From Candidatus Nomurabacteria bacterium (lineage in GTDB: Bacteria; Patescibacteriota; Minisyncoccia; Phycocordibacterales; Phycocordibacteraceae): DNA of 11,096 nt. The first letter of the stretch is position 1. Each line of letters begins with the position of its first letter. The position numbers and the translations under genes are program-made. Below are positions 2,101-9,970 of the stretch, piece after piece. A model generated the notes under the pieces. The model was not told the DNA's origin. It made no database searches and saw only the letters and a program-made list of their open reading frames with translations. The stretch lies in contig CALRDY010000016.1 of the NCBI GenBank assembly GCA_943355045.1, positions 1-11,096 of the forward strand. The letters are read 5' to 3'.

Positions 2101-2112
2101 TCCTACTATTCT

Positions 2113-2706
2113 ATGAACCACCGCCGCATACTCTCGCAGATCGCTCTCGTTACCGGGGCGCTCCTGCTCTCCGTCGGCGTGCAAACCTTCGCCGCATTCT
2201 CTGCACCCTCAACCGCGCCGCCGGGCGCCGATGCGTATGCGCCGCTTCACACCGGCTCGGACGCGCAATCAAAAGTCGGCGGTCTCCTCCTCAATACCGG
2301 CGGCGCGATCAACGGACTCATCGTGCAATTTGGGAATGTGGGCATAGGAACAACCAATCCGACGGCGAGACTAGAAGTTGCGGGAGAAATTAAAATTGGA
2401 AATACTGGTATGGGTTGCAATACTGCAGCGCAAGGTGTTATGCGCTACAACGCCACCGGCAAAAAAATGGAGTTTTGTTCTCCCGATGGTGCGGGTACCG
2501 GTGTCCCGGGATGGGCAGCGATGGGAACTGTAGCGGCGAGCGCTCATGCGCCCGATACTCAAACTTTCAATGCTTCAGGTACCTGGACAAAACCAACCGG
2601 CTTTTCTTCAACAGCTGCATCTCTTGTCCGCTGTTGGGGATCCGGAGGGGGAGGAGGGGGGGGATGGAGGAGCGGGACCAGGGGGAGGAGACTTCGGGAA
2701 CACTAG
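2113..2706 (+). CDS. Glycine-rich tail-fibre-like surface protein, 5' reading frame (frame broken at G8)
   Basis: Start 12 nt after the previous stop, without an SD. Residues 1-28 form a signal peptide or N-terminal anchor (MNHRRILSQI, then a hydrophobic core, ending TFAA). Residues 29-86 form a module shared with the gene at 3133 (APPGADAYAPLHTGSDAQSK ... FGNVGIGTTNP). The VGIGTTNP..RLEV motif resembles phage tail-fibre and collar-type surface proteins. A spacer with two Cys (102, 122) follows, then FNASGTWTKPTGFSS and the start of a glycine-rich domain (RCWGSGGGG). That domain opening is typical of the glycine-rich family found in tail fibres. At the G8 run (2656-2663) this frame turns into 14 non-family residues (WRSGTRGRRLREH) and stops at 2706. 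The rest of the domain continues in the next frame (see 2657-3136). Taken alone, the 197-residue product would be a truncated form. I read 2113-3136 as one gene of about 340 codons, with one G too many for continuous reading. Confidence 0.8.
   Translation: MNHRRILSQIALVTGALLLSVGVQTFAAFSAPSTAPPGADAYAPLHTGSDAQSKVGGLLLNTGGAINGLIVQFGNVGIGTTNPTARLEVAGEIKIGNTGMGCNTAAQGVMRYNATGKKMEFCSPDGAGTGVPGWAAMGTVAASAHAPDTQTFNASGTWTKPTGFSSTAASLVRCWGSGGGGGGGWRSGTRGRRLREH
2656..2663 (+). repeat. G8 homopolymer at the frame break
   Basis: Eight consecutive G within a 21-nt all-purine run (2644-2664). Seven G would join the frame of 2113 to that of 2657-3136. G-tracts of 5, 8, 3 and 5 (2647-2651, 2656-2663, 2674-2676, 2681-2685) also make this a possible G-quadruplex. 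Candidate explanations are a phase-variable tract, a +1 recoding site, or a sequencing/assembly length error. Confidence 0.85.
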
Positions 2707-3136
2707 TGGCGGCCCCGGCGGTAATGGAGGCGGAGGGGCTTATGAAGAGGTCACGATCCTTCTGTCATCCTTGCCTGCAAGCGTACCTATTTCCATTATC
2801 CCTGGCGCCGCCGGCATTACCGGTGGCTTTGCCGGTTCTGGCAGCAACGGAGGTACTGGCTCGACCAGCTTTGGTAGCACGCTCGTGGCCGCGGGCGGTG
2901 GTGGTGGTGGCGGCGGTGGTGGTGGCTATGATTCTTTTACTGGGCAATATTATAACGGCTCAAGTGGGATTCCTGGCGCCGGCGGCATCGCCTATACTGC
3001 GAACGGTGTTTCTGGCTATAGTTCTGGCACTGCAGGACTCGGCGGCGGACTCGGAACAAGTCCTGGTGGTGGTGGTGCAGGCGGTTCATCTGGTGCCAAT
3101 GGAAGGTGTATTGTTACTATCACTGATAATGTATGA
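2657..3136 (+). CDS. Same glycine-rich surface protein, 3' reading frame (C-terminal half)
   Basis: This frame continues the glycine-rich domain begun in the gene starting at 2113. It reads GGDGGAGPGGGDFGNTSGGP, then AYEEVTILLSSLPASVPISI (a beta-rich stretch), SSTSFG-like GSTSFGSTLVAAGG, an 11-Gly tract (2894-2926), and ends GRCIVTITDNV. The order is what one expects for the Gly-rich tail-fibre domain: Gly run, beta strands, G..STSFG..AAGG, Gly run, final strand ending in VT. Extending the frame upstream to an ATG at 2546 gives residues with no family features, so 2546 is probably not a real start. I consider this segment to be translated only if the G8 run loses a base or is bypassed. The later Gly tract uses GGT/GGC, unlike the GGA/GGG codons around the G8 run. 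The TGA (3134-3136) overlaps the next ATG as ATGA, showing that this frame's end is functionally tied to the following gene. Confidence 0.7.
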   Translation, partial: GGDGGAGPGGGDFGNTSGGPGGNGGGGAYEEVTILLSSLPASVPISIIPGAAGITGGFAGSGSNGGTGSTSFGSTLVAAGGGGGGGGGGGYDSFTGQYYNGSSGIPGAGGIAYTANGVSGYSSGTAGLGGGLGTSPGGGGAGGSSGANGRCIVTITDNV

Positions 3137-3597
3137 ACCATCGCCGTTTCCTCTCCCAGATCGTACTCATCGTCGGAGTGCTTCTGTTCTCCGCGGGTCT
3201 TCAGACGTTTGCTGCATTCACAGCGCCCGCAACCGCGCCGCCGGGCGCCGATGCGTATGCGCCGCTCCACACCGGCTCGGACGCGCAATCGAAAGTCGGC
3301 GGACTTCTCCTCAATACCGGCGGCGCGACGAACGGTCTCATCGTGCAGTTTGGCAATGTGGGCATCGGCACGACGAACCCATCGCAAAGACTTGAAATAA
3401 ACGGCAACGTGCAGATAAGCGGTACCATTCGAGGAGCGAGCTACGGATTTGGGGGAATGTATACGATTCTTGGTGATCAGGTTTCTTGTGGGTATCCAAA
3501 CCCAATAACTGGCGGCTGCAGTTGTCCGAGTGGTTTTACTACTTCGCCCCCAAATTACACCGTCGCTACTTTGGTAACTTATTTTTGTTACAAGTAA
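3133..3597 (+). CDS. Paralogous surface protein: shared N-terminal module, Cys-containing tail
   Basis: A 154-residue exported protein. Residues 1-86 align without gaps to residues 1-86 of the gene at 2113: MNHRRFLSQI and a hydrophobic signal core ending TFAA, then the APPGADAYAPLHTGSDAQSK and VGIGTTNP motifs. The nucleotide sequences are also closely similar at a constant offset of 1020 bp, so the pair arose by duplication. The C-terminal part differs completely: RLEINGNVQISGTIRGASYG, then a short domain with four Cys (119, 129, 131, 152) in the pattern CGYPNPITGGCSCPSGF ... FCYK. Disulfide bonding outside the membrane is plausible. The ATG overlaps the preceding TGA (ATGA), so translation is probably coupled to that frame. 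It is the last gene of the surface cassette; uvrA has its own promoter. Exact function unknown. Confidence 0.82.
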   Translation: MNHRRFLSQIVLIVGVLLFSAGLQTFAAFTAPATAPPGADAYAPLHTGSDAQSKVGGLLLNTGGATNGLIVQFGNVGIGTTNPSQRLEINGNVQISGTIRGASYGFGGMYTILGDQVSCGYPNPITGGCSCPSGFTTSPPNYTVATLVTYFCYK

Positions 3598-3794: not shown

Positions 3795-6530
3795 ATGAAA
3801 AAGACCAAACCAGAAGGGCGCGAACACCGGCCCCGTGAGATAGTCGAAGACGACATCTCACGGGGCAAGCACGGAAGCCGTGACCATCGTCACGGTAGTG
3901 ACTGGCTGTCTGTCCGTGGAGCAAGGACCCATAATTTGAAGAATATCTCAGTTGAGATGCCACGCGGCGCGATGACGGTCATCACGGGTCTTTCGGGAAG
4001 CGGAAAGTCATCGCTTGCGTTCGATACGATTTTTGCCGAGGGGCAGCGGCGTTATGTCGAATCGCTCTCCGCGTATGCGCGGCAATTCCTCAATCAGATG
4101 GCGAAGCCGGATGTCGACGAGATTACCGGTCTTTCGCCAGCCATTTCCATAGATCAGAAGAGCCGCTCAAATAATCCTCGCTCGACGGTAGCGACGGTCA
4201 CTGAAATTTACGATTACCTGCGCGTGCTCTACGCGCGTGCGGGACAGCCCTACTGCATTCATCACGATGTGCCCATTGTGCGGCTCTCGAAAGAAGAGAT
4301 GATCAAAATGGTGTTCATGCGGGTGGAAGCGAAACGTAAAGGCACGGGGACGAGTGTCATGGGTGTCGCTGTCGATAAGACGGCGGTTACTATTTACGCG
4401 CCGGTCGTCGTCGGCAGGAAGGGTGAGTACTACCAGCTGCTCTACGACCTTCTCGGCAAAGGATATGAAAAAGTCGTCATCGACGGGAAGCAGCAGTCGC
4501 TCCGCGAAAAGATCGTGCTCGACCGGAACAAGCAGCACAGCATCGACGTGCTCGTCGACTCTATCTTCGTTTCTGAATTCGCACGCACAACCGCAGGTGC
4601 ACGTGAGCGCTTGTCGGAAGCTCTCGAGCTCGCACTTAAACAGTCGGACGGCCTCGTGAAGATCCAGCACGCCGACGGCACGCTCGAGACGCTCTCGTCG
4701 AAATTTATTTGTCCGGAGGACGGAGCCTCTTTTCCTGAAGTCGAACCACGACTCTTTTCTTTTAATTCGCCGTATGGTGCATGTCCGGCGTGCCACGGTC
4801 TCGGCACCGAATCGCTTTTTTCAGAAGAAATCTGTCCGGTATGTGCAGGGAAGCGTCTGCGCCCCGAGGCGCTTCGCGTATTTCTTACATCTGGCAACTT
4901 GGAGGCCGGGCCTCCAAGTGGAGGCCCGGCCTCCAAGTTGGGCGTCAACATTGTGGACTTTACGAACATGTCGATTAAGGAGGCGAAAGAGTTCGTCGAT
5001 ACTATCGAGCTGTCGGAAATGAAGAAAGATATCGCCGCGCCCATCCTCAAGGAAATAAATAGTCGTTTGACCTTCATGCTGAATGTCGGTCTCGACTACC
5101 TGACCCTCAATCGCTCCGCCGCGACGCTCTCGGGCGGGGAAGCGCAGCGCATCCGGCTCGCCTCGCAGCTCGGCAGCGGGCTCACGGGCGCTTTGTATGT
5201 GCTTGACGAGCCGACCATCGGGCTCCATCAGCGCGACAATGACCGCCTCATCAAGACCTTGCTCGTCCTGAAAGAGCTCGGGAATACGATTATCATCGTC
5301 GAACATGACGAAGATACGATTTATTCCGCTGATTATCTCGTCGACATCGGTCCGGGCGCGGGCGTGCATGGAGGTCAGGTCGTCGCGTCCGGCTGGCTCG
5401 ATGATCTTCTGACCGCAAAGGAGAATGAGAACAGTTCGCTCACGCTTTCGTACTTGCGACAGGAAAAAGAAATTGCGATACCCGAGGTGCGCCGCACGAG
5501 CGAAAAGGGCTGGATCAAAGTGCGCGGCGCGACCCTGCATAATCTCGTGAATCAGAATATCGACGTGCCGCTCGGGAAGCTCGTGTGTATCACGGGCGTT
5601 TCGGGAAGCGGGAAGTCGACCTTCCTCTACGACATTCTGCATCGCAATATCGCCGGACGCTTTGCTCGGCGCGAAGCGAAGCTCGCTCATATCGCGTCTT
5701 TGACCGGCACCGAATACGTTGGTCGCGCGGTGCTCATCGATCAGTCGCCCATCGGCCGCACGCCGCGCTCAAATCCGGCGACGTACACGGGCGCCTTCAC
5801 GCATATTCGCGACCTCTTCGCCGCGACGCCTGAAGCGCGCGCGCGAGGATGGAAGCCGGGACGCTTCTCGTTCAACGTCCCTGGCGGCCGCTGCGAAGCG
5901 TGCCAAGGAAACGGTTCCATCGCGGTCGAGATGCACTTTTTGCCGACGGTATATGTGACGTGCGATATCTGCATGGGCAAACGCTTCATGAAAGAGACGC
6001 TTGAGATCACGTTTCGCGGAAAGACCATCCATGAAGTGCTCCAGATGACGATTGAGGAAGCAGAGAAATTCTTCGGCGACATTCCTGCGATCAGCGATCG
6101 CCTGATGAGCTTGAACTCGACTGGGCTTGAATACCTCACGCTCGGGCAGAGCGCGACGACGCTCTCGGGCGGGGAGGCGCAACGCGTAAAAATTGCGAGC
6201 GAACTGTACCGTTCGATGACGATGAAGACGATTTACCTTCTCGATGAGCCGACGGTCGGCCTTCACTACGAGGACGTGCGCAAGCTCATCGAAATCCTGC
6301 AAGAGCTCGTGCTGCGTGGCAATACGGTCGTCGTCATCGAGCACAATCTCGATGTCATCAAGAGCTCTGACTACATCATCGACTTCGGTCCTGAGGGCGG
6401 CGCGGGTGGCGGAAAAATAGTTGCGAAGGGTACGCCTGAAGAGGTCGTCGACACAAAGGGTTCGTATACCGGAGAATATCTCGAGAAAGCTCTGCGACGC
6501 CATGCAAAAAAGCGCTCTACAAAAATATAA
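3795..6530 (+). CDS. uvrA: UvrABC excinuclease subunit A (compact form, palindrome insertions)
   Basis: UvrA is the dimeric ABC-type ATPase that scans DNA for damage and loads UvrB. At 911 residues it is near the family's usual 940, but differently built. ABC module 1 has Walker A GLSGSGKS (65-72), signature [13 protein letters not shown] and Walker [13 protein letters not shown]. Module 2 has [23 protein letters not shown] and [11 protein letters not shown]. The UvrB-binding region ([10 protein letters not shown] to about residue 300) is present. The C-terminal zinc finger is complete (CEACQGNG ... CDICMGKRF). The first finger reads C306-P-E-D instead of C-x2-C, with C330/C333 kept. Only about ten residues separate GLG from [10 protein letters not shown] (C347, C350), where E. 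coli has roughly 110-125; the flexible insertion domain is therefore missing. Residues 1-36 are an extension rich in hairpin DNA, and residues 368-383 come from an inserted palindrome. The start is the only ATG before the conserved [11 protein letters not shown]; no SD. uvrC overlaps its 3' end. Confidence 0.97.
3830..3866. repeat. 12-bp inverted repeat in uvrA 5' coding region
   Basis: GCCCCGTGAGAT (3830-3841) and ATCTCACGGGGC (3855-3866) are perfect inverted arms around a 13-nt loop that itself contains GTC-GAA-GAC. It starts 35 nt after the uvrA ATG and encodes part of the non-conserved N-terminal extension. In mRNA it would be a stable hairpin close to the start codon. Confidence 0.8.
3878..3895. 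repeat. 7-bp inverted repeat in uvrA 5' coding region
   Basis: CCGTGAC-CATC-GTCACGG (3878-3884, 3889-3895), a perfect tetraloop hairpin 11 nt after the preceding palindrome. It ends just before the conserved UvrA core begins ([12 protein letters not shown]). Confidence 0.7.
4895..4940. repeat. 46-bp palindromic element inserted in frame in uvrA
   Basis: The arms at 4895-4916 and 4919-4940 are perfect 22-bp inverted repeats around AG. Each arm contains the smaller palindrome GGAGGCC-G/C-GGCCTCC, so GGAGGCC or its complement occurs four times. The element is flanked by GG on both sides (4893-4894, 4941-4942), a possible 2-bp target duplication. Element plus one GG is 48 bp, that is 16 codons ([16 protein letters not shown], residues 368-383). 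Removing it restores [16 protein letters not shown], which aligns without a gap problem to ordinary UvrA. It resembles Rickettsia palindromic elements in behaviour, not in sequence. Confidence 0.85.
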
Positions 6531-9685: not shown

Positions 9686-9756
9686 CGGGCTGGCGTATGC
9701 CGGTAGTACATGCGATTCGGGTTCGTAAAGACCGGGTTCGATTCCCGGCAGCCCGA
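9686..9756 (+). tRNA. tRNA-Pro (anticodon CGG)
   Basis: A 71-nt cloverleaf. Acceptor CGGGCTG/CAGCCCG with the C1-G72 pair typical of bacterial tRNA-Pro; D-arm GTAT-GCCGGTA-GTAC; anticodon stem TGCGA/TCGTA with loop TTCGGGT (anticodon CGG); variable AAGA; T-arm CCGGG-TTCGATT-CCCGG; discriminator A; no CCA. Oddities are G instead of T at position 8, G-T pairs in the D- and anticodon stems, and a short D-loop. It is probably functional, but it is the least canonical of the four. Confidence 0.85.
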
Positions 9757-9769
9757 CAGAGGACATCTC
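9742..9769 (+). repeat. 28-bp direct repeat, copy 1 (tRNA-Pro 3' end)
   Basis: Runs from the T-arm through the acceptor 3' strand and trailer (TTCCCGGCAGCCCGACAGAG, then GACATCTC). It is identical to 9935-9962. Confidence 0.9.
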
Positions 9770-9970
9770 TCAGAATGGGCCACATAGTTAGTATGCTAAC
9801 TTATACCAAGTAGGGTGTGCCGGGAATCGAATGCCGGAGCTATGTTCGGCTAGCAAGCCGAACCGCGAGGCGGGGCCGAGAAAATTCGTGAGTGGCGACG
9901 AACGAATTATTCGTGGCCGAAACCGTAATCGGGGTTCCCGGCAGCCCGACAGAGGACATCTCAAAATATT
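9757..9970 (+). other. Gene-free structured stretch after tRNA-Pro
   Basis: No credible ORF. It holds AGTTAG-TATG-CTAACT (9787-9802); an inverted 14-nt copy of the tRNA-Pro T-arm sequence TTCGATTCCCGGCA (9818-9831 against 9737-9750); GTTCGGC-TAGCAA-GCCGAAC (9844-9863); and CCGC-GAG-GCGG (9863-9873). It also holds two mutually exclusive hairpins, AATTCGT/ACGAATT (9883-9889, 9902-9908) versus ACGAA-TTA-TTCGT (9902-9914), and the second direct-repeat copy. On the minus strand the T-arm-like part followed by CACACCC looks like a decayed tRNA, but no matching acceptor 5' strand exists. Confidence 0.5.
9935..9962 (+). repeat. 28-bp direct repeat, copy 2
   Basis: Exact copy of 9742-9769, displaced by 193 bp, ending 8 nt before the ATG at 9971. 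It can pair with the tRNA-Pro leader (9672-9692) as well as copy 1 can. It also supplies AGAGGA 14 nt before that ATG, the only SD-like string near a start in the window, though too far away to be standard. Confidence 0.9.

What the first reader, a model, noticed from the sequence alone, without database searches (positions are those of the whole stretch)
4893..4942. Palindromic element inserted in frame inside uvrA, encoding 16 extra residues
A 46-bp near-perfect palindrome (22-bp arms, AG centre, nested GGAGGCC units) lies within uvrA at a point where the normal protein has no such segment. It is flanked by GG on both sides; removing 48 bp restores a seamless conserved sequence (FLTSG-VNIVDF). 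Length, reading frame and boundary repeats fit insertion of a small mobile palindrome tolerated in a protein-coding gene, as known for Rickettsia palindromic elements. I know of no named Patescibacteria equivalent, though I cannot search.
Basis: partly seen in the sequence, partly recalled or inferred. Interest (0 to 1): 0.75.

Follow-up and report, generated by a model that had tools for sequence, protein, structure and literature searches.

The report
Transposase-linked DNA hairpin inside repair gene
A short DNA hairpin of the kind handled by a single-strand-cutting transposase found elsewhere in the same genome sits in frame inside the DNA-repair gene uvrA of a tiny Patescibacterium, and relatives carry such hairpins at fixed places in several essential genes and inside the transposase gene itself.

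Summary
The palindrome is real (22/22-bp arms, window 4895-4940) and in frame in uvrA. It is an inverted pair of a dispersed 23-bp hairpin, ACTTGGAGGCC-S-GGCCTCCAAGT. The genome has 10 of this type: two in uvrA, one each in trmD, tsaD, tsaE, two in frame inside a Y1 (HUH) transposase gene, three flanking it; two more hairpins are of related types. The transposase model's best PDB match is E. coli TnpA-REP (4er8). So this is a REP/RAYT system, not a Rickettsia-type RPE. In-frame REPs, also in uvrA, are published for other phyla (Di Nocera 2013). What looks new: a Paceibacteria RAYT clade with its own REP at up to two fixed in-frame positions of its ORF, and concerted evolution: within 21 RAYT loci hairpins share 18.4/19 bases, between loci 14.3/19; 0 of 2000 permutations reach this. 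In-gene sites persist while sequence changes: tsaD and tsaE show the same three compensatory pair changes between sister genomes, though two hairpins of other types hardly change.

The parts
3795..6530 (+). uvrA (excinuclease ABC subunit A), 911 codons, reading through the element
4895..4940 (.). 46-bp palindrome: inverted pair of two REP-like hairpins (REPIN-like); codons 4896-4940 read [15 protein letters not shown]
4897..4919 (+). first 23-bp hairpin ACTTGGAGGCCGGGCCTCCAAGT, identical to dispersed copies
4919..4939 (-). second hairpin (inverted), core TGGAGGCCCGGCCTCCA at 4919-4935
4860..4961 (+). uvrA loop site (RPEALRVFL ... VNIVDF) that holds other palindromic or repeat inserts in some genomes of the genus and a short KKDKT-type linker in 18 of 30 loci

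Best explanation
The palindrome is a REPIN-like pair of REP hairpins, disseminated by a REP-associated Y1 (HUH) tyrosine transposase encoded elsewhere in the genome (G000:C31). Proposed working (inferred): the transposase recognises its hairpin in single-stranded DNA, probably at replication forks, cuts at its foot, and places copies at new or already occupied sites. Insertions in essential genes survive only if their length keeps the frame and the peptide is harmless; the hairpin is stop-free in all frames, and surviving copies avoid the frame that would encode TWRxxLQV. An occupied site tends to persist, while its sequence comes to match the hairpin type then current in the genome (concerted evolution of that type). 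Shown: repeats, in-frame positions, one clean empty site, co-variation with the transposase, shared sites. Inferred: cutting, copying, and in-place replacement.
For: Ten identical-core copies, seven in frame in genes and three flanking the transposase gene. Clean 21-nt empty site in trmD of the closest relative G002. Transposase: Pfam Y1_Tnp 27.7 bits over cut-off 23; H90 and Y150 invariant, N89 and H92 nearly so, in 40 aligned sequences; best Foldseek hit 4er8, E 1.2e-6. The nine close loci of the protein search (own one included) carry hairpins upstream, at one or two fixed positions inside the ORF, and downstream. Within-locus similarity 18.43/19 (75% of 92 pairs identical) against 14.27/19 at the same site between loci (1.6% of 615); 0 of 2000 permutations. 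At least two dispersed ACTTGG hairpins in 8 of 9 genomes with the close transposase and 5 of 49 without, Fisher p 5.5e-6. Dispersed copies equal to the own transposase's type: G000 5/7, G023 4/4, G003 2/2, G017 4/8, G004 1/2. Same codon site with genome-specific hairpin: tsaE, tsaD, an FAD-oxidase-like gene (5 genomes), uvrA (3 genomes, each as an inverted pair). Frames: LEAxPPS 23, LGGxxSK 22, TWRxxLQV 4 among 49 copies in ORFs of 200 aa or more outside RAYT loci.
Against: No movement was observed. NCBIfam REP_Tyr_transpos matches at only 20.6 bits, below its cut-off 80. No GTAG or CGTC tag at the feet: 4 and 2 of 145 hairpins, about chance. Homogenisation is not genome-wide: G000 keeps two hairpins of other types (C23, C30), and their G002 counterparts are the same (C23) or differ by one inserted G (C30). 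Dispersed copies do not match the close transposase in G063 (0 of 3 seen) and G071 (0 of 8); G002 and G059 have 6 and 8 hairpins without a close transposase; other transposases of those genomes were not tested as sources. Over the seven genomes compared 16 of 34 dispersed copies match. Twelve of the 21 RAYT loci came from a scan for the hairpin itself and so are selected; nine are not, but one of these is the own locus. In G076 (L189) one in-ORF copy deviates.
Confidence: 0.83

Rival explanations
1. Rickettsia-type palindromic element (RPE): selfish palindrome in coding genes without its own transposase.
For: In frame in unrelated housekeeping genes, as RPEs are (PMC10969869, passages seen).
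Against: A Y1 transposase gene contains and is flanked by the same hairpin and co-varies with it; the unit is 23 bp, the pair 46 bp, against about 150 bp quoted for RPEs.
Confidence: 0.05
2. Selected regulatory or structural hairpins: each hairpin is kept because a host or RAYT protein binds it, and copies co-evolve by selection at each site, with no copying.
For: Sites are fixed and stems show compensatory changes; in-ORF hairpins are kept in RAYT genes.
Against: Loop letters and even mismatches are shared within a genome: G059 has the imperfect ACTTGGGTGTCTCGCCGCCAAGT (one strand or the other) in 8 of 8 listed copies. Clean empty site in trmD.
Confidence: 0.12
3. Quasi-palindrome correction or ectopic template switching during replication homogenises the hairpins, with RAYT only an ancient source.
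For: Arms are perfect and at the tsaE (C43) and RAYT sites the palindrome runs on into copy-specific flank.
Against: Does not by itself explain identical changes at tsaD and tsaE on different contigs or the association with the close RAYT. In the wide set flank pairing is modest.
Confidence: 0.2
4. Ordinary lineage-specific loop of UvrA, or assembly artefact.
For: The loop is variable in the genus.
Against: Same DNA hairpin in unrelated genes and in many separately assembled genomes.
Confidence: 0.01

Closest known systems
REP elements and RAYT/TnpA-REP (REPtrons), e.g. E. coli TnpA-REP, PDB 4er8
   Same: Short hairpins, single or as inverted pairs, flanking a Y1 HUH transposase gene and dispersed in the genome; structural match to 4er8
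   Different: No GTAG tag at the foot; low copy number (10 of this type here; at most 50 matches of one pattern in any of 297 genomes of the order); REPs also inside the transposase ORF; 52 of 110 copies outside RAYT loci lie in ORFs of 150 aa or more
Intragenic GTAG/CGTC REPs of Di Nocera et al. 2013 (PMC3733652)
   Same: In-frame REPs in uvrA (Thioalkalivibrio, O. terrae), DNA ligase, tRNA synthetases; different REPs at about the same recB site in two Xanthomonas (sections 15 and 16 and the first part of 17 read)
   Different: Other phyla and tags; the parts read report REPs overlapping transposase gene ends but none inside a RAYT ORF, and no concerted replacement at coding sites
Rickettsia palindromic elements (RPE)
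   Same: Palindromes in frame in essential genes
   Different: About 150 bp as quoted; no transposase partner (recalled); different lineage
REPINs (Bertels and Rainey 2011, PMC3116915; search listing and abstract start only)
   Same: Two REPs in inverted order form the unit (recalled), as in uvrA of G000, G063 and G059
   Different: Here often single hairpins, and often in coding genes

Membership tests
RAYT / TnpA-REP transposase | Y1_Tnp domain with HUH motif and conserved tyrosine | tested here: met
   PF01797 above cut-off; N89-H90-x-H92 and Y150 in alignment A1; that Y150 is the catalytic one is inferred from its YVNLN context (recalled)
RAYT / TnpA-REP transposase | Fold of TnpA-REP | tested here: met
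   AlphaFold pLDDT 83.2, pTM 0.81; top PDB hit 4er8, E 1.2e-6, TM 0.45 by query and 0.60 by target, rmsd 6.0
RAYT / TnpA-REP transposase | Scores above the NCBIfam model NF047646 | tested here: not met
   Only NCBIfam family listed, but 20.6 bits against cut-off 80
RAYT / TnpA-REP transposase | Gene flanked by REPs of the same family as dispersed copies | tested here: met
REP element | 20-40 bp hairpin, dispersed, single or in inverted pairs | tested here: met
REP element | GTAG (or CGTC) tetranucleotide at one foot | tested here: not met
   GTAG 4, CGTC 2 of 145 hairpins within 8 nt, about 5.6 expected for any one tag
REP element | Extragenic | tested here: not met
   52 of 110 outside RAYT loci are in ORFs of 150 aa or more; for all 145 it is 68, random positions 564 of 725
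REP element | Recognition and cleavage by the RAYT | not testable with these tools
   needs biochemistry
Rickettsia palindromic element | In-frame insertion in protein genes | tested here: met
Rickettsia palindromic element | Length about 150 bp and Rickettsiales host | tested here: not met
   23 and 46 bp; host in the genus of a Ca. Kaiserbacteria genome (contig lengths of G017 equal JACRFL010000013.1 and JACRFL010000001.1)

The most novel reading that the evidence does not exclude
In this Paceibacteria clade the RAYT exchanges hairpins in place: it treats sites occupied by its kind of hairpin, in host genes and in its own ORF, as cassettes, so that when its specificity shifts those copies are rewritten, and with them peptides in proteins such as UvrA, TsaD, TsaE and the transposase itself. 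The in-ORF copies would make the transposase gene both source and target of its own element. (Odds lowered from 0.3 after one search showed that hairpins of other types in the same genome are left unchanged.)
Probability: 0.26. Interest if true: 0.85.

Novelty: new variant of a known kind. Interest (0 to 1): 0.61.

Why it matters
How REPs spread is an open question; their dissemination mechanisms are called poorly understood (PMC8266576, abstract start in the listing). Here sites stay put while the sequence turns over in step with the transposase, so insertion and replacement can be read from closely related genomes. It also shows that small genomes tolerate mobile DNA in essential proteins at fixed loops, and that such loop residues in Patescibacteria proteins should not be read as adaptation without a check.

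Tried and rejected
Diverged copies in the own genome: no one-mismatch copy; two hairpins of related types were first overlooked and found on re-checking. Target-site duplication or GG boundary repeats: not supported. A fixed target motif: flanks show only a weak C(A/C) ... (T/G)GG trend. Flank palindromy as a general insertion product: strong at some sites, modest overall. PDB search by sequence: no hit for the single RAYT; profile hits to 2xm3 and 2xma only at E above 0.4, not significant. Papers (searches; 7 of 10 allowed): none of the listed titles and abstracts describes REP/RAYT in coding genes of Patescibacteria; most subscription journals and bioRxiv are not in that library. Counts of copies inside RAYT loci used were taken by me. 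The listing was cut, so G076 copies and one G063 copy were not read there. Gene names such as FAD oxidase, miaA and murC are my reading of the sequence.

Full report
Observation. The window holds a perfect 22-bp inverted repeat with a 2-nt centre at 4895-4940, in frame in uvrA. It folds far better than its shuffles as RNA or DNA. The unit is a 23-bp palindrome, ACTTGGAGGCC-S-GGCCTCCAAGT; the uvrA element is two of them in inverted order sharing their inner ends.

Copies in the genome. A search of the own genome (452,166 bases, 51 contigs) finds 10 cores TGGAGGCCSGGCCTCCA with no mismatch to TGGAGGYYNRRCCTCCA, none with one, and three with two. Besides the two in uvrA the ten lie in trmD (C11), tsaD (C17, minus strand), tsaE (C43, minus strand; one outer base is changed), and five on C31. 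The seven that fall in genes keep the reading frame. On C31 two are inside, and three flank, a 226-codon gene of the Y1_Tnp family. Two of the three two-mismatch hits, on C23 and C30, are hairpins of related types, ACTTGGCGGTTTAACCGCCAAGT and ACTTGGGGGTTAAACCCCCAAGT; I first took them for unrelated and found this on re-checking. The C30 copy has no ORF over 93 aa across it; the C23 copy is crossed by a 179-codon frame, where the G002 counterpart has only a 59-codon one.

The transposase. The one NCBIfam model listed is REP-associated tyrosine transposase, at 20.6 bits against a cut-off of 80. In an alignment of 40 relatives H90 and Y150 are invariant and N89 and H92 nearly so. The AlphaFold model (pLDDT 83.2, pTM 0.81) matches E. 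coli TnpA-REP bound to its REP hairpin first (4er8, E 1.2e-6); IS608 and ISDra2 transposases follow among Thg1 proteins at weaker E-values. The peptide coded by the first in-ORF hairpin falls in residues 63-72, which are modelled with pLDDT under 50.

Concerted evolution at the transposase locus. A protein search of 58 genomes of the genus gives relatives in 35, of which nine are close (62% identity or more, G000 itself included). All nine loci have hairpins upstream, in frame at one or two fixed places in the ORF, and downstream, alike within a locus with one clear exception (L189, first in-ORF site), but each genome, G000 and G017 excepted, has its own sequence, such as ACTTGGAAGTCGGACTTCCAAGT in G063, ACTTGGCGGTTTCACCGCCAAGT in G023, and CGTGGCGGTCCGACCGCCACG in G005. 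With 12 more loci from the named-genome scan, 21 loci have the site upstream in 19, first in-ORF in 18, second in-ORF in 16, downstream in 19. Hairpins of one locus share on average 18.43 of 19 central bases (92 pairs, 75% identical); hairpins at the same site of different loci share 14.27 (615 pairs, 1.6% identical), no more than hairpins at different sites (14.30, 1849 pairs); 0 of 2000 column shuffles reach the observed value. Hairpins lacking TGG...CCA were left out of this count. Other imperfect loci are L239, L285, L340 and L333, whose downstream copy is of another type. Twelve of the loci were found through the hairpin, so only nine are unselected, the own one among them.

Dispersed copies follow the transposase, in part. 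The pattern ACTTGGN{9,13}CCAAGT gives 98 forward matches in 21 of 58 genomes against 4 for the reversed control. At least two copies outside the transposase locus occur in 8 of 9 genomes with the close transposase and in 5 of 49 without it (Fisher p 5.5e-6). Copies equal to the own transposase's hairpin: 5/7 in G000, 4/8 in G017, 2/2 in G003, 1/2 in G004, 4/4 in G023, 0/3 seen in G063, 0/8 in G071, that is 16 of 34; G076 was not read and G005 has none of this pattern. G002 and G059 have 6 and 8 copies without a close transposase.

Fixed sites in genes. trmD of the closest relative G002 lacks exactly 21 nt (VEKALKTRGG against VEKALGGRASKLKTRGG). At tsaE, 7 of the 30 loci fetched carry a CTTGG-type hairpin at the same place (G000, G002, G017, G012, G071, G026, G063), with differing inner sequence. 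Between G000 and G002 the tsaD site has about four mismatches in 45 nt on each side (81.7% identity over 150 nt on each side), while the hairpin differs by three compensatory pairs; the tsaE hairpins differ by the same three pairs and one outer base. The C23 hairpin, of another type, is the same in both genomes and the C30 one differs by one inserted G, so not every hairpin takes part. An FAD-oxidase-like gene has a hairpin at the same codon in G017, G023, G004, G059 and G063, in the first three of the type of the own transposase. A miaA-like gene has one within four codons in G071, G017 and G023, of the own type only in G023. At the uvrA site three genomes have an inverted pair of this family, each with its own centre (G000, G063, G059); others have other palindromes or repeats; 18 of 30 loci have only a short linker. 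UvrA of G. stearothermophilus (2r6f) has no such segment.

Wider spread. In 297 genomes of the order 101 have a match to the looser pattern, up to 50 copies; the reversed control reaches at most 4. Of 145 hairpins in the 119 stretches 68 lie in ORFs of 150 aa or more, against 564 of 725 random positions, so they are depleted in long ORFs about 1.7-fold yet common there. Outside transposase loci, among 49 copies in ORFs of 200 aa or more the frames are LEAxPPS 23, LGGxxSK 22, TWRxxLQV 4 (P 3.7e-5 for the deficit). This points to selection on the peptide, not only on frame. No gene finder was run; ORFs stand for genes.

What is known. Di Nocera 2013 (sections 15 and 16 and the first part of 17 read) reports in-frame REPs in many genes, many in replication and repair, uvrA included, and REPtrons. 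So an in-frame REP in uvrA is not new in kind. I found no report of REPs at fixed in-frame positions inside the RAYT ORF, of concerted replacement at coding sites, or of any of this in Patescibacteria. The usual GTAG tag is absent.

Verdict. Most likely a REPIN-like element of an untagged RAYT family. Copying is supported by repeats, shared loop letters and the empty site; the enzyme's role is inferred from co-variation, association and structure; in-place exchange is the bold reading, template switching and selection the rivals.

Noticed in passing
window 9686-9769 and 9935-9962: A 28-bp exact repeat: the 3' part of tRNA-Pro (9686-9757) and the bases after it recur 193 bp downstream, like a scar of integration at a tRNA gene.
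   Followed up: no
window 2107-2376 and 3127-3396: Two 270-nt copies, 81% identical, in neighbouring ORFs (perhaps duplicated surface-protein genes).
   Followed up: no
L183 1344-1370 (G000:C31): AAATGTGGACTTCGTAAGTCCACATTT upstream of the transposase equals the hairpin that flanks and lies inside a distant RAYT of G002 (L209): probably a second REP family in this genome.
   Followed up: partly
G000:C23 about 5701 and C30 about 5413 (L386 1502, L387 1514): Two hairpins of related types, shared with G002 and nearly unchanged; C23 also holds a distant RAYT relative at 2862-3281.
   Followed up: partly
L047, L048, L049, L051, L052, L053, L065, L067 (uvrA site); L141 (tsaE); L161, L163, L169 (trmD); L105, L108, L116 (tsaD): The same four gene sites hold other palindromes or repeats in other genomes, perhaps from other RAYT families.
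   Followed up: partly
G101:C6 31924-32661: Four hairpins with RAYT-like spacing, three of one type and the last of another, as if caught part-way through replacement; L333 looks alike.
   Followed up: no
L250 6841, L298 1585: The hairpin in a contig titled Bacteroidia (in frame in a 312-aa ORF) and in one titled Clostridia: misbinned contig or transfer.
   Followed up: no
L279, L281, L319; L264, L282: Hairpins at the same place in a murC-like gene (3 loci) and in a second shared gene (2 loci) across named Paceibacteria.
   Followed up: no
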